Assembly: GCA_018825785.1 (NCBI GenBank)
Contig: JAHKAY010000056.1
Span: 1-48,707 of the forward strand
Reading direction: 5' to 3'
From: Chloroflexota bacterium
Lineage (GTDB): Bacteria; Chloroflexota; Dehalococcoidia; JACVQG01; JAHKAY01
Length of the DNA stretch: 48,707 bases
A program made the position numbers and the translations under genes. Of the stretch, positions 28,623-35,258 are shown in pieces. The notes under the pieces are model-generated. The model did no database searches. It had not been told where the DNA came from and saw only the letters and a list, made by a program, of their open reading frames with translations. How positions within the stretch are numbered: position 1 is the stretch's first letter; each line of letters starts with the position of its first letter.

Positions 28623-29744
28623 CTATATGCGAAGCTCTGAGTGGACGCGGATAAAGCGTAGGATGCTATCCCGGGCCACGATGCCCAGGAGCCGGCCCCC
28701 CTCCACCACGGGGAGCTGGTTTATGTCCTGGGAGTCCATCCTCTCCAGGAGGCTCGCCATCTCCTCCCTGGGGCTGGCCGTCTGGACCTGGTCCATGGGG
28801 GTCATAGCCTGGAAAAGGGGGGTGGTGGGCCAGAGAGAATTGGGTACCGCTTTGATGTTATGCAGGGTCATCATCCCCTCCAGCTTCTCCCCAGAAGCCA
28901 CCATGAAGCACCTTCTCCCACTGCGCAGGACATTGCCGTCCACCAGCTCCCGGACGGTGAGGTCCGGAGGGACCAGAGGGCAATCCTGGGTCATCACCTC
29001 AGCAACAGTAATCCCTTTGAGGGCGTCCCGGAGTACCGCCTGGCGGTAACTGGAGGAGGCCGCATTCTCCAGGAACCAGCCGATGAAGGCCAGCCATAAT
29101 CCGCTCACCCAGTCCCGGGTGAGAAAGGCCAGGAGGATGCCGCCAAGAATAAAGAGGAAAGCGATGCCCTGTCCCAGGATAGTGGCATAGCGGGTGGCCC
29201 GGCGGAAGTCCCCGGTAGCCCCCCAGAGAATGGAACGGAAGACCCGCCCCCCGTCCAGGGGGAAGCCAGGGATGAGATTGAACACGGCCAGAAGGACGTT
29301 GATGCGGGCAAGCCAGGCCGCCAAGGCATTGACCGGCTGGCTCAGGGGGGCAGAGATAACGGCCACCCCCCAGAAAAGGGTACCCAGCAAGAGGCTGGAC
29401 AGGGGCCCGGACAGGGCCATGAGGAGTTCCCCCCTGGGCTGGATGGGCTCCCGGCTTATCCGCGCCACCCCCCCAAAAATGAAAAGGGTGATGCTCTTCA
29501 CCGGCACGCCAAAGCGCACGGAAACCACGCTGTGGGCGAGCTCATGGGCCACCACCGAGGCGAAGAAAAGGAGGCTGGTGGCCACCCCCACCCCCCAGGC
29601 AAGCCGGTTGCTCCACGTGGGGTAGGCATCAGGGAAGTAGAACCCGGAGAGGGAAAGGGTCACCAGGGCGAAGATGAAGAACCAGGAATAGTGGACAAGT
29701 ATGGGCATCCCCAGCAGATTCCCCAGGCGGAAAGAGCCGCTCAT
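28623..29744 (-). CDS. Site-2 protease (M50) with CBS pair
   Basis: Intramembrane zinc metalloprotease. HELAH (H67, E68, H71) lies in a membrane helix, and the second metal motif NLIPGFPLDGG (D164) follows. Six hydrophobic segments cover residues 1-230. Residues 240-370 form two CBS repeats, which usually bind adenosyl ligands and regulate the protease. Its ATG overlaps the speB stop (ATGA), making it the last gene of the polyamine operon. No sigma or anti-sigma substrate is encoded beside it. Confidence 0.88.
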   Translation of the reverse strand: MSGSFRLGNLLGMPILVHYSWFFIFALVTLSLSGFYFPDAYPTWSNRLAWGVGVATSLLFFASVVAHELAHSVVSVRFGVPVKSITLFIFGGVARISREPIQPRGELLMALSGPLSSLLLGTLFWGVAVISAPLSQPVNALAAWLARINVLLAVFNLIPGFPLDGGRVFRSILWGATGDFRRATRYATILGQGIAFLFILGGILLAFLTRDWVSGLWLAFIGWFLENAASSSYRQAVLRDALKGITVAEVMTQDCPLVPPDLTVRELVDGNVLRSGRRCFMVASGEKLEGMMTLHNIKAVPNSLWPTTPLFQAMTPMDQVQTASPREEMASLLERMDSQDINQLPVVEGGRLLGIVARDSILRFIRVHSELRI

Positions 29745-30607
29745 CTCTGCCCCTCTACCGCGTAGCCCATCAGCTTATAGGCCAGCTTGGCGGCGGTAAA
29801 GGCGCATGCGGCTGGCCCCTGCCTGGGGCACAGCTCCACCAGGTCAAACCCCACCACTTCCTTTCTCCCTGCCACGGCCTTGAGCAACGCCAGGGCCTCC
29901 CCCCAGCCCAGCCCCCCCGGCTCCGGGCTCCCCACCGCCGCCATGATGGCCGGGTCCAGCACATCCAGGTCAATTGTAATGTAGACCCGGGCCGAAAGGG
30001 AAGCCAGGACATCTTCTATGGGGATGTCCCCCGGGGCAAAATAGCGCAGGCCCTTCTCCTTCACAAATACCTGTTCCTCAGAGCTGAGGCTGCGGATGCC
30101 CACCCCCACCACCGGGCAGAGCTCCATCAGCCGGCGCATTGTGCAGGCGTGGCTGTACCGGGTGCCCAGGTAACTCTGCCGCAGGTCAGCATGGGCATCC
30201 AGATGGAGGACGGAAATGTCGGGATAGCGCCGGACCATGGCCCTCGCCACCCCCACCGTGATTGAATGCTCCCCCCCCAGAACGACGGGGAACTTCCCCT
30301 TCTCCAGTATCCATGCCACCGCCCTCTCCACCCTGGAAACCATCCCGGCGGGACTGCCAAGGACGGGCTCGAGCTCCATGAGGGTATGAATGCCCACCCT
30401 GAAAGTCTCCCGGTCCAGTTCCTGGTCATAGAACTCCAGGTTCTGGGAGGCGTCTATGATGGCCCGGGGGCCCTCCCGCTGGCCGCTATGCCAGCCGACG
30501 GTGGAGTCATAGGGAACGGGGAGGACCACAATCCGCGCCTTCTCCAGGAGGCTATAAGGCTCTCCGATACCGGCGAAGTTGCGAGGCAAAGAGGGGCCCG
30601 GCTTCAT
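29741..30607 (-). CDS. speB: Agmatinase / arginase-family ureohydrolase
   Basis: Binuclear manganese hydrolase, predicted to convert agmatine to putrescine and urea. Metal motifs: GGEHSIT (GGDHS in most agmatinases; the substituted residue is not a ligand), LDAHADLR and TIDLDVLDP. N-terminal PYDSTVGWHSGQREGPRAI is the substrate-side signature. 288 residues from ATG 30607, which overlaps the previous stop by 4 nt. Specificity for agmatine and not for another guanidino compound such as aminopropylagmatine is not settled by sequence. Confidence 0.85.
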   Translation of the reverse strand: MKPGPSLPRNFAGIGEPYSLLEKARIVVLPVPYDSTVGWHSGQREGPRAIIDASQNLEFYDQELDRETFRVGIHTLMELEPVLGSPAGMVSRVERAVAWILEKGKFPVVLGGEHSITVGVARAMVRRYPDISVLHLDAHADLRQSYLGTRYSHACTMRRLMELCPVVGVGIRSLSSEEQVFVKEKGLRYFAPGDIPIEDVLASLSARVYITIDLDVLDPAIMAAVGSPEPGGLGWGEALALLKAVAGRKEVVGFDLVELCPRQGPAACAFTAAKLAYKLMGYAVEGQR

Positions 30608-31611
30608 CCCAGGGGAACGGCCAGGCCCTTCCGGGGCAGGATGGCCTGGCACCTTTCGGCAAGCGCGCTCACGATGAGAGGCAAAGCGATGGTGGCATCG
30701 GAATAGACGGTAACGGTCCCGGCCCCTTTGGCTACCTTCCCCCAGGAGCGGGCCTCCTCAAAGGTGCAGCCGGAGAGGCCACCCCACTGGGGGGAATCGG
30801 TGGTTATCTGGACGGCGTATTTATGCCCCATCACCGGCTGGCCGAAGAGGCCGACACAGAGGGACGCCTGCTGGATGAAGTTCTTGGGGGTGCCACCTCC
30901 CACAAGCACCACCCCCGTGGCAGGGGCCCGGGCGCAGAGCTGGATTGTGTCCAGCACATCCTGGGCCAGGTCCCATTTGAGCTCGCAGCCGTATTTCATC
31001 CGGGCAATGGCCAGGGCAGTGCCCAGAACGCTGTCGGCCAATGCGGGGCAGAAGACGGGAACCCCGTTCTTGTAAGCCGAGGCCAGGATACCATCGGCCC
31101 CGGCCTGAGAGGAAAGCTCTTTTCCCAGGAGGCAAAGGTATTCCCGCGTGCCTACGGGTTTTTCCGGGGGCAGACGGGCGGAGAAGCGGGCGACGAAGTC
31201 CTCCCCCTGCTCCAGCTCTCCGGCCCGGAGGAGGGTATCATACACCCGGTTTAGCCTCGCCTGGCGGAGGTCCTCGTCATGCCCGGGCTGGCTCTGGAAG
31301 TGGTAAAAGCCCAGGCTCTCGTGGATGTCGTGGAAGAGGTTGGCCCCGGTGCTCACCAGGCAATCAATGAGGCGGTTCTGGATGAGATAGGCGATGACAG
31401 GGCGCAGGCCGGCGGGGACCATAGCTCCCGCCAGGCCAAAGAAGATAAAGGTCTCCCCTTTCAGCATCTTCTCCCAGAGGCTCGCAGCCCGGGAGAGATT
31501 GCGGGCCTGAAAAGATGTCCCCCCCATCCTCTCCAGGAGCTGGGCCAGGGACCAGGGGGGACAGATGGAGAGGGGGGTAGTGGGGGTCTTCAGTGGGTCA
31601 TGGGGGGCCAT
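30604..31611 (-). CDS. Deoxyhypusine synthase-like aminobutyl/aminopropyl transferase
   Basis: 335 residues of the DHS fold. NAD-binding and substrate segments match the family: FFGLAGAMVPAGLRPVI, STGANLFHDIHESLG, and the final block with EEARSWGK, whose lysine (K292) aligns with the catalytic lysine of eukaryotic DHS, followed by TVTVYSDATIALPLIV. Bacteria lack eIF5A, so the bacterial homologs must act on small amines. Adjacent speD and speB make a polyamine product very likely. Start ATG 31611 follows GAGGAAGGAG and overlaps speD by 14 nt. A longer start at 31659 is possible. Confidence 0.82.
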   Translation of the reverse strand: MAPHDPLKTPTTPLSICPPWSLAQLLERMGGTSFQARNLSRAASLWEKMLKGETFIFFGLAGAMVPAGLRPVIAYLIQNRLIDCLVSTGANLFHDIHESLGFYHFQSQPGHDEDLRQARLNRVYDTLLRAGELEQGEDFVARFSARLPPEKPVGTREYLCLLGKELSSQAGADGILASAYKNGVPVFCPALADSVLGTALAIARMKYGCELKWDLAQDVLDTIQLCARAPATGVVLVGGGTPKNFIQQASLCVGLFGQPVMGHKYAVQITTDSPQWGGLSGCTFEEARSWGKVAKGAGTVTVYSDATIALPLIVSALAERCQAILPRKGLAVPLG

Positions 31612-32014
31612 GGCTCCTTCCTCGGGGGCGGGCAGGCTCCATCTCAAGGGGGAGGTCAAAGTCCGGGTATTCCAGGCCGCGCCGGAGGAGATGGCTCCTC
31701 ACCCGGGTGAGTTTGAACTCCTCCCGGAGCTGCCGGACCACCTCAACGGCATCAAATTCCTTGCAGGAGAAGATGTCAATGTTGAGGAGGCGTTTCTCCA
31801 CAAAGGTGTGGATGGTCATATGGCTTTCGGCGATGAGAACGAAAGCGGAAAGCCCCCAGTCTTCCGGCTTGGTGCCTACATACCTGAAAACGAAGGGAGG
31901 GGTCACCTTTTTCATGCCTATCTGGGCCGGAAACCGGTCCAGGAGGCCGTAGATGAACCCCTCATCCTGGAGGAGCTGGGGGTCAGACCCATACCCATCC
32001 AATATCAGGTGCAT
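31598..32014 (-). CDS. speD: S-adenosylmethionine decarboxylase proenzyme
   Basis: Pyruvoyl enzyme that makes decarboxylated SAM, the aminopropyl donor. The self-cleavage motif AESHMTIHTF has the pyruvoyl-forming S64, and the active-site cysteine C84 lies in IFSCKEFD. 138 residues fits the prokaryotic class 1b form. ATG 32014 is preceded by GAGGAGGT at 10 nt. It is the first gene of the operon and overlaps the DHS-like gene. Confidence 0.88.
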   Translation of the reverse strand: MHLILDGYGSDPQLLQDEGFIYGLLDRFPAQIGMKKVTPPFVFRYVGTKPEDWGLSAFVLIAESHMTIHTFVEKRLLNIDIFSCKEFDAVEVVRQLREEFKLTRVRSHLLRRGLEYPDFDLPLEMEPARPRGRSHGPP

Positions 32015-32110
32015 TAGAGCCTACCTCCTCAATGAGCTAGTTTCTCGGGGGCCTGGCGCCCCCCCCATTAGGTCCAGGCGGTGATAAACCACCTCCTATC
32101 CATTTTCAGA
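32015..32110 (-). promoter_or_regulatory. Structured leader of the speD operon
   Basis: The predicted transcript starts near 32108 and has about 94 nt before speD. On the minus strand AGGTGGT-TTATC-ACCGCCT forms a fully paired 7-bp hairpin, and GGGGGGC-GCCA-GGCCCCC a second GC-rich one. The speD Shine-Dalgarno follows. The layout suits post-transcriptional control by polyamine or SAM, but no known riboswitch consensus is recognised. Confidence 0.4.
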
Positions 32111-34454: not shown

Positions 34455-35258
34455 CTATCTTATCGGAGCGCTGGCTTCCAGTATGGAGCGGAGGCGGCGC
34501 AGCTCTTCCTGGTGATGGGGGCAGAGCTCCCCCTTTAGCTGGGCCTGGAGCATCTCCTCCTGCCAGTGGGCGTTGTAGAGGGGGCAGGTCCTCTCGGGGC
34601 AGAAGGCCTCCCCGGTCAGGTGGTAGAAGAGGGCCTGGAGGACAAAGCCCTGCATCACCTGGGTAAGGCGGGGGTCGTCGTGGACCAGGGCCCTCTCCCG
34701 GAACTCCTGCTCCAGCTTCACCGCCGCCGCATCCCCCATCCCCAGGGCCGCGAACTGCTGTTTAAGGATATAGTATTCCCGGGGCCGGGCGGGTCCCTCC
34801 ACAGCCCCCATGGTGGAAAGGAGGGTGGGGAAGCCAAAGACCCCCGTCCTTATGTGATACCGTCCCTCCTCCCAGGTCCCCAAAAGCTGGTTGGTGAAGA
34901 TAACATGGATGTGGGAAAGACCCCCCTCCTGCCGGGGGAGGAGGGCGTGGCAGAGGGCCCGGATGAGAAGGCCGTCATAGACCAGGCCGAAGAGGGGGCG
35001 GGGGGAAAGTAGGCGCCTTTTCTCAAACTCCACCTCTCCGTGGAGGGGAGGCGGAAAGTCCTGTTTCATCGAGTTCCTCACCTTGGCCCGGGCCCAGCCC
35101 AGGGCCAGCTCCTCCACCCGGTCTTTGCCCCAGAACGAGAAGAAGCCCTCCCGCAGGTGGACATTGAGGGGGAGGAGGGTTTCCACGAACGCCTTTATCC
35201 GGGGAAGGTCCAGGGTGGGGGCGGCGGGCTCCCCGTAGAGATAGAGCTCAGCCTTCAT
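34455..35258 (-). CDS. DUF6775-like putative metallopeptidase
   Basis: 267 residues, soluble. Middle segment HIHVIFTNQLLGTWEEGRYHIRT and the C-terminal FCPERTCPLYNAHWQEEM block with two cysteines and a histidine match what I recall of the DUF6775 family of putative metallopeptidases, but I cannot confirm it here. No canonical HExxH is present. ATG 35258 is preceded by the structured region 35259-35427. It precedes cinA by 29 nt on the same strand. Confidence 0.55.
   Translation of the reverse strand: MKAELYLYGEPAAPTLDLPRIKAFVETLLPLNVHLREGFFSFWGKDRVEELALGWARAKVRNSMKQDFPPPLHGEVEFEKRRLLSPRPLFGLVYDGLLIRALCHALLPRQEGGLSHIHVIFTNQLLGTWEEGRYHIRTGVFGFPTLLSTMGAVEGPARPREYYILKQQFAALGMGDAAAVKLEQEFRERALVHDDPRLTQVMQGFVLQALFYHLTGEAFCPERTCPLYNAHWQEEMLQAQLKGELCPHHQEELRRLRSILEASAPIR

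What the first reader, a model, noticed from the sequence alone, without database searches (positions are those of the whole stretch)
30604..32014. speD, DHS-like and speB operon: probable non-canonical polyamine route
Bacteria lack eIF5A, the DHS substrate, yet this homolog keeps the WGK lysine. Flanking SAM decarboxylase and agmatinase imply an amine-transfer step, for example to homospermidine or a spermidine-type product, without a classical spermidine synthase. The product cannot be fixed from sequence.
Basis: partly seen in the sequence, partly recalled or inferred. Interest (0 to 1): 0.6.

Follow-up and report, generated by a model that had tools for sequence, protein, structure and literature searches.

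The report
Arginine-to-homospermidine operon without spermidine synthase
Three overlapping genes in a Chloroflexota (Dehalococcoidia-like) bacterium most likely turn arginine into the polyamine homospermidine, using a repurposed SAM-decarboxylase relative to decarboxylate arginine; the same gene set was described in other bacteria in 2023, so this is a new example of a known pathway.

Summary
The genes are there: speD-like (32014-31598), a DHS homologue (31611-30604, catalytic Lys292 kept) and agmatinase (30607-29741), overlapping on the minus strand. The genome (96.7% complete) has no speE and no other known arginine or ornithine decarboxylase. This SpeD scores below the AdoMetDC cut-off, lacks the AdoMetDC-invariant Pro and all four SpeDC residues. 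Its clade is never beside speE (0 of 26 copies), whereas the canonical SpeD of the same class is in 23 of 25. In orthologous DHS loci the linked decarboxylase is PvlArgDC (31) or SpeA (5) instead of this SpeD (9), never two; speE in 0 of 80. Best reading: arginine -> agmatine (SpeDA-type), agmatine -> putrescine (SpeB), 2 putrescine -> homospermidine (SpeY-like DHS). Li et al. 2023 (PMC10407285) described the same SpeDA-SpeB-SpeY set and proved the first step in other phyla. Main rival: CdmS-style agmatine coupling; the active site argues against it but does not exclude it. New member of a known kind. Noticed: SpeD fused to a Lys-less DHS-like domain in seven other Chloroflexota genomes.

The parts
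31598..32014 (-). speD-like gene, 138 aa; probable SpeDA (pyruvoyl arginine decarboxylase). Processing Ser64, His69, Cys84 kept; HTFVE in place of HTWPE
   Evidence: Pfam PF02675; TIGR03330 62.5 bits, below the 75.65 cut-off; alignments; tree
30604..31611 (-). DHS homologue, 335 aa; probable SpeY-like homospermidine synthase, catalytic Lys292
   Evidence: Pfam PF01916 E=1.3e-90; active-site comparison; tree
29741..30607 (-). speB, agmatinase, 288 aa from ATG 30607 (a GTG at 30652 is also possible); metal motifs GGEHS, HLDAHAD, DLDVLDP
   Evidence: TIGR01230 250.3 bits against 174.3; motifs
28623..29744 (-). M50 site-2-type protease with CBS domain, overlapping speB by 4 nt; probably co-transcribed, link to polyamines unknown
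   Evidence: ATGA overlap; Pfam

Best explanation
An arginine-to-homospermidine operon. (1) The SpeD-derived pyruvoyl enzyme (SpeDA type) self-cleaves at Ser64 and decarboxylates L-arginine to agmatine. (2) SpeB hydrolyses agmatine to putrescine and urea. (3) The DHS homologue, acting like SpeY, uses NAD and Lys292 to oxidise one putrescine, holds the 4-aminobutyl group as an imine on the lysine and passes it to a second putrescine, giving sym-homospermidine. No SAM, spermidine synthase or eIF5A is needed. Shown here: gene content, absence of the other decarboxylase families and of speE, clade membership, residue patterns, and the swapping of arginine decarboxylases beside orthologous DHS genes. 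Inferred: all three activities, the order of steps 2 and 3, and the product.
For: No speE, PvlArgDC, OKR decarboxylase or agmatine deiminase in the genome; the only PF02784 protein is LysA. SpeD below the AdoMetDC cut-off, Pro lost, SpeDC residues absent. Window-type SpeD beside speE in 0 of 26 copies, canonical in 23 of 25; window-type beside SpeB in 21 of 26. SpeD tree: window in the speB/DHS-linked clade 96/96, speE-linked copies with both solved AdoMetDCs 99/97. In 80 DHS loci the linked decarboxylase is PvlArgDC 31, SpeD 9, SpeA 5, never two, speE 0. DHS pocket matches a homospermidine-type homologue at 11 of 12 positions and not true DHS. The same gene set has proven arginine decarboxylase activity elsewhere (PMC10407285).
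Against: No activity can be tested here. The characterised SpeDA sequences could not be fetched, so the window was not placed on a tree with them. Some window-type relatives keep the Pro and score just over the AdoMetDC cut-off. The DHS falls below every NCBIfam subfamily cut-off, so putrescine use rests on residues shared with one homologue whose own annotation is by family. 3.3% of the genome may be missing.
Confidence: 0.75

Rival explanations
1. Caldomycin order: SpeDA makes agmatine, the DHS homologue couples two agmatines (as Thermus thermophilus CdmS does), and SpeB then removes the two guanidino groups to give homospermidine. Same end product, with the hydrolysis after the coupling.
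For: Agmatine is present upstream and a ureohydrolase is always needed; CdmS is a DHS homologue with the same lysine (PMC10981699). The window keeps Leu286, Glu293 and Lys299 and has Glu at Asp143. The window scores slightly higher against PRK02492 (249 bits) than PRK00770 (226), both far below cut-off.
Against: Ser67, Glu136 and Phe204 of CdmS are Ala, Ala, Thr; the CdmS family is a separate clade, 100/99. The same SpeB type also occurs beside window-type SpeD in genomes that have canonical SpeD-SpeE and no DHS, where its plain role is agmatine to putrescine.
Confidence: 0.15
2. One reading: SpeD is a true SAM decarboxylase and the aminopropyl group is transferred to agmatine or putrescine by a non-SpeE enzyme.
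For: Pfam names it AdoMet_dc; some relatives just pass TIGR03330.
Against: No aminopropyltransferase family member in the genome; all the SpeD evidence above; DHS chemistry moves aminobutyl, not aminopropyl, groups (established knowledge of the family).
Confidence: 0.04
3. The SpeD is an ornithine decarboxylase (SpeDC), making putrescine directly.
For: SpeDC occurs in Chloroflexota: Anaerolinea thermophila (PMC10407285), and SpeDC-like copies found here.
Against: All four SpeDC diagnostic residues are absent and the SpeDC-like clade is separate, 100/100; agmatinase would be superfluous.
Confidence: 0.02
4. The DHS homologue is a true deoxyhypusine synthase modifying a protein.
For: Same fold family and catalytic lysine as DHS.
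Against: The substrate-pocket residues of true DHS are replaced at most of the positions compared, in the way seen in a homospermidine-type homologue. eIF5A was not searched in this genome.
Confidence: 0.02

Closest known systems
SpeDA-SpeB-SpeY clusters (Ca. Marinimicrobia, Solirubrobacter sp., Capsulimonas corticalis, Woesearchaeota, marine group II/III; Li et al. 2023, PMC10407285)
   Same: Same three gene families clustered, no speE, no other arginine or ornithine decarboxylase, SpeD with the Pro lost
   Different: Different phylum/class; activity not tested here; sequence relation to the assayed SpeDA proteins not tested
SpeY, DHS-like homospermidine synthase (NCBIfam PRK00770 type; Anabaena, Burnat et al. 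2018, cited in PMC10407285)
   Same: Catalytic lysine; 11 of 12 active-site positions identical to one PRK00770 member from another Chloroflexota
   Different: Only about a third identical overall to that member (36% by tblastn); 225.7 bits against a 450 cut-off
CdmS, caldomycin synthase of Thermus thermophilus (PMC10981699; NCBIfam PRK02492)
   Same: DHS homologue working with an agmatinase-type enzyme towards homospermidine; Leu286, Glu293, Lys299 shared
   Different: Ser67, Glu136, Phe204 not shared; separate clade; 249 bits against a 500 cut-off
PvlArgDC-DHS-SpeB operons of Myxococcota/Deltaproteobacteria, Nitrospirota and others (loci L140-L170, this work)
   Same: Orthologous DHS (about 46-54% identical) and agmatinase
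   Different: The arginine decarboxylase is the unrelated pyruvoyl enzyme PvlArgDC

Membership tests
SpeDA (SpeD-derived arginine decarboxylase) | SpeD homologue with the self-processing Ser, His, Cys | tested here: met
   Ser64, His69, Cys84 aligned to T. maritima S63, H68, C83
SpeDA (SpeD-derived arginine decarboxylase) | No SpeE partner and no SpeA/SpeC/other arginine or ornithine decarboxylase in the genome | tested here: met
   genome 96.7% complete
SpeDA (SpeD-derived arginine decarboxylase) | Agmatine-to-putrescine gene present and clustered | tested here: met
   speB two genes downstream in the same overlapping run
SpeDA (SpeD-derived arginine decarboxylase) | AdoMetDC-invariant Pro not conserved | tested here: met
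   Val in the window; Pro, Val or Glu across the clade
SpeDA (SpeD-derived arginine decarboxylase) | Groups with assayed SpeDA proteins | not tested
SpeDA (SpeD-derived arginine decarboxylase) | Decarboxylates arginine, not SAM | not testable with these tools
   Needs an enzyme assay
AdoMetDC (SpeD, class 1b) | TIGR03330 equivalog cut-off | tested here: not met
   62.5 against 75.65 bits
AdoMetDC (SpeD, class 1b) | Invariant Pro of the HTWPE motif | tested here: not met
   HTFVE
SpeDC (ornithine decarboxylase) | Gln, Thr, Phe, Tyr diagnostics | tested here: not met
   Val, Glu, Thr, Asn at those positions
SpeY-like homospermidine synthase | DHS family with catalytic lysine and without the pocket of true DHS | tested here: met
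   Lys292; GAPHDTNWLEWK against SNSEDDHDDEWK
NCBIfam PRK00770 homospermidine biosynthesis protein | Equivalog cut-off 450 bits | tested here: not met
   225.7 bits; so not filed in this subfamily
CdmS (NCBIfam PRK02492) | Equivalog cut-off 500 bits and Ser67/Phe204 | tested here: not met
   249.1 bits; Ala and Thr
True deoxyhypusine synthase | Substrate pocket of DHS (Ser105, Asn106, Ser109, Glu137, Asp243, His288, Asp313) | tested here: not met
   All seven replaced
Agmatinase (SpeB) | TIGR01230 over cut-off and ureohydrolase metal motifs | tested here: met
   250.3 against 174.3 bits; GGEHS, HLDAHAD, DLDVLDP

The most novel reading that the evidence does not exclude
The DHS subfamily of this clade, below every existing NCBIfam cut-off, has its own specificity: for example coupling agmatine with putrescine or with itself using a pocket unlike CdmS, so that homospermidine is reached through a guanidinylated intermediate by a second, independently evolved enzyme.
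Probability: 0.1. Interest if true: 0.45.

Novelty: new member of a known kind. Interest (0 to 1): 0.25.

Why it matters
It extends the SpeDA-SpeB-SpeY route, shown so far in a handful of phyla, across many families of one Chloroflexota class. It also shows three unrelated arginine decarboxylases (SpeD-derived, PvlArgDC, SpeA) linked to orthologous DHS genes. It is a practical warning that a speD annotation without speE should not be read as spermidine synthesis.

Tried and rejected
Conserved leader RNA upstream of speD: Rfam gave nothing above its gathering thresholds, the fold is not unusual (z -1.4) and the upstream regions of relatives match the window only in Shine-Dalgarno-like or chance stretches. 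Promoter and terminator scan: none found. Phage origin of the DHS: no phage match; phage SpeDs match at most 44%. Thermus CdmS itself could not be fetched (handle not accepted), so PRK02492 members of other Chloroflexota were used as stand-ins; one checked member carries all seven published CdmS residues at one constant offset. Agmatine deiminase as an alternative route to putrescine: none in 60 genomes. Structure prediction was not run: the fold is clear from sequence and a model would not separate putrescine from agmatine.

Full report
WHAT IS THERE. On the minus strand a speD homologue (32014-31598, 138 aa), a DHS homologue (31611-30604, 335 aa) and an agmatinase (30607-29741, 288 aa) overlap by 14 and 4 nt and run on with a 4-nt overlap into an M50 protease gene. 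The DHS start at ATG 31611, with a good Shine-Dalgarno, is better than the listed TTG at 31659. Pfam assigns AdoMet_dc, DS and Arginase. The genome is 1.59 Mb in 60 contigs, 96.7% complete.

WHAT IS MISSING. The genome has no spermidine synthase, one SpeD, one DHS, no PvlArgDC, no OKR-type decarboxylase and no agmatine deiminase. Its only alanine-racemase-fold decarboxylase is LysA (449.8 bits, cut-off 297.9). If this SpeD made decarboxylated SAM, no known enzyme here would use it and none would make agmatine for the agmatinase. Homospermidine synthase of the unrelated HSS type and eIF5A were not searched.

THE SPED IS OF SPEDA TYPE. Li et al. 2023 (PMC10407285) showed that SpeD homologues in genomes without SpeE, clustered with SpeB and SpeY, decarboxylate arginine, not SAM. 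Their markers: processing Ser/His/Cys kept; the AdoMetDC-invariant Pro not conserved; SpeDC enzymes recognised by Gln, Thr, Phe, Tyr. The window has Ser64, His69 and Cys84, Val in place of the Pro (HTFVE), and Val, Glu, Thr, Asn at the SpeDC positions. Tandem SpeD2 copies of other Chloroflexota show a pattern that fits the SpeDC residues (MTQLIETS...HF...Y); I assigned those positions myself from the paper's text, since its figure is not held. The AdoMetDC equivalog model gives 62.5 bits against a cut-off of 75.65, while a canonical relative gives 144. Two other window-type copies score just above that cut-off (75.9 and 77.6), so the score alone would not settle it.

GENOMIC CONTEXT WITHIN THE CLASS. 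Among 60 genomes there are two SpeD types. Canonical copies sit next to speE in 23 of 25; window-type copies never do (0 of 26) but are next to SpeB in 21 of 26, two of the other five lying at contig ends. Eight genomes have both types; seven of them have SpeE, and the eighth canonical copy is on a short contig. Of genomes with only the window type, 15 of 18 have a DHS; of genomes with both types, 1 of 8 (Fisher p 0.001, not corrected for relatedness). PvlArgDC occurs beside canonical SpeD-SpeE in six genomes, none of which has the window type; one other genome has PvlArgDC together with the window type. A maximum-likelihood tree puts the window in the speB/DHS-linked clade (96/96), apart from a clade with all speE-linked copies and both solved AdoMetDCs (99/97) and from the SpeDC-like clade (100/100).

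SWAPPING OF ARGININE DECARBOXYLASES. In the 80 named loci with the best DHS matches, the linked decarboxylase is PvlArgDC in 31, window-type SpeD in 9 (all Chloroflexota), SpeA in 5, and none found within the 4-kb flanks in 35; never two, and speE in none. Two SpeA and two PvlArgDC assignments were checked with NCBIfam; three passed their cut-offs and the fourth was a partial frame that passed one of two. Three unrelated proteins in one context have arginine decarboxylation in common. Some named loci are the same contigs as the genome-search hits (for example L136 and L054), so the sets are not fully independent.

THE DHS HOMOLOGUE. At twelve pocket positions (human numbering 105, 106, 109, 137, 238, 243, 288, 313, 316, 323, 327, 329) human and Pyrococcus DHS read SNSEDDHD[DL]EWK, the window reads GAPHDTNWLEWK and a PRK00770 homospermidine-type homologue from another Chloroflexota (521.6 bits, over its cut-off) reads GAPHDMNWLEWK. 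Thermus CdmS, which couples agmatine (PMC10981699), has seven published key residues. All seven fall at one constant offset in a PRK02492 family member scoring 575.6 bits; the window keeps Leu286, Glu293 and Lys299, has Glu for Asp143, and has Ala, Ala, Thr for Ser67, Glu136, Phe204. Glu136 is kept in some sister proteins, so it is a weak marker; Ser67 and the Trp/Asp difference at position 313 are cleaner. The CdmS family is a separate clade (100/99). That tree has long branches, which the tool flags, including the PRK00770 row. The window protein falls below every NCBIfam DHS-family cut-off, so its clade is not covered by a named equivalog and I do not file it in PRK00770.

MECHANISM. Arginine -> agmatine (pyruvoyl SpeDA) -> putrescine (SpeB) -> homospermidine (NAD-dependent transfer of the aminobutyl group through Lys292 to a second putrescine). 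The chemistry of step 3 is taken from what is established for DHS and DHS-like homospermidine synthases. I put the SpeD assignment at about 0.9 and the putrescine-using order at about 0.8, together about 0.75.

NOVELTY. The gene set and the SpeDA activity are published for other phyla; the Chloroflexota enzyme assayed in that paper's main text (Anaerolinea thermophila) is SpeDC, and the word Dehalococcoidia does not occur there. This is therefore a new member of a known kind. What may be new is the breadth across this class, the three-way swap of arginine decarboxylases, and the SpeD-pseudo-DHS fusions listed under things noticed.

Noticed in passing
L116-L122 (genomes G183, G130, G123, G115, G138, G084, G065; other Chloroflexota families f64, f86, f88): Single open frames of about 475-624 codons join an intact SpeD domain to a DHS-like domain that lacks the (S/T)WxK catalytic-lysine motif (Pfam found both domains in the one tested, P0002). 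The same genomes hold a separate full-length DHS hit elsewhere. A decarboxylase fused to a probably dead DHS domain, perhaps a regulatory or assembly partner; not mentioned in the parts of Li et al. 2023 that I read.
   Followed up: partly
L185, L187, L189, L199, L208, L213 and others: Archaeal DHS homologues (Methanosarcina, Hadesarchaea, Bathyarchaeota and others), annotated by NCBIfam PRK00805 as deoxyhypusine synthase where tested, share the homospermidine-type pocket rather than the human/Pyrococcus pocket; they may be misannotated.
   Followed up: no
L164 and L174, DHS domain: SpeA-linked DHS homologues of Bacterium HR10 and a Blastocatellia MAG have Ala and Arg in place of the catalytic lysine (WGA, WGR), so they may be inactive or changed.
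   Followed up: no
window 32015-32110 (-); L052, L057, L058 upstream of speD: Two Shine-Dalgarno-like stretches before speD, with a short ATGATATGA between them in L052 and L057; could be a tiny leader frame. Not shown to be conserved in the window.
   Followed up: partly
window 34455-35258 (-): Protein matching DUF6775 / DUF7001 (probable metallopeptidase family, function unknown) between a cinA gene and a Thi4-like gene.
   Followed up: no
L216 (Trichormus variabilis ATCC 29413 plasmid A, 4001-5044): A plasmid gene annotated deoxyhypusine synthase scores 592 bits against the CdmS-type family PRK02492 (cut-off 500) and carries its residues, so it may make a bis-guanidino polyamine.
   Followed up: partly
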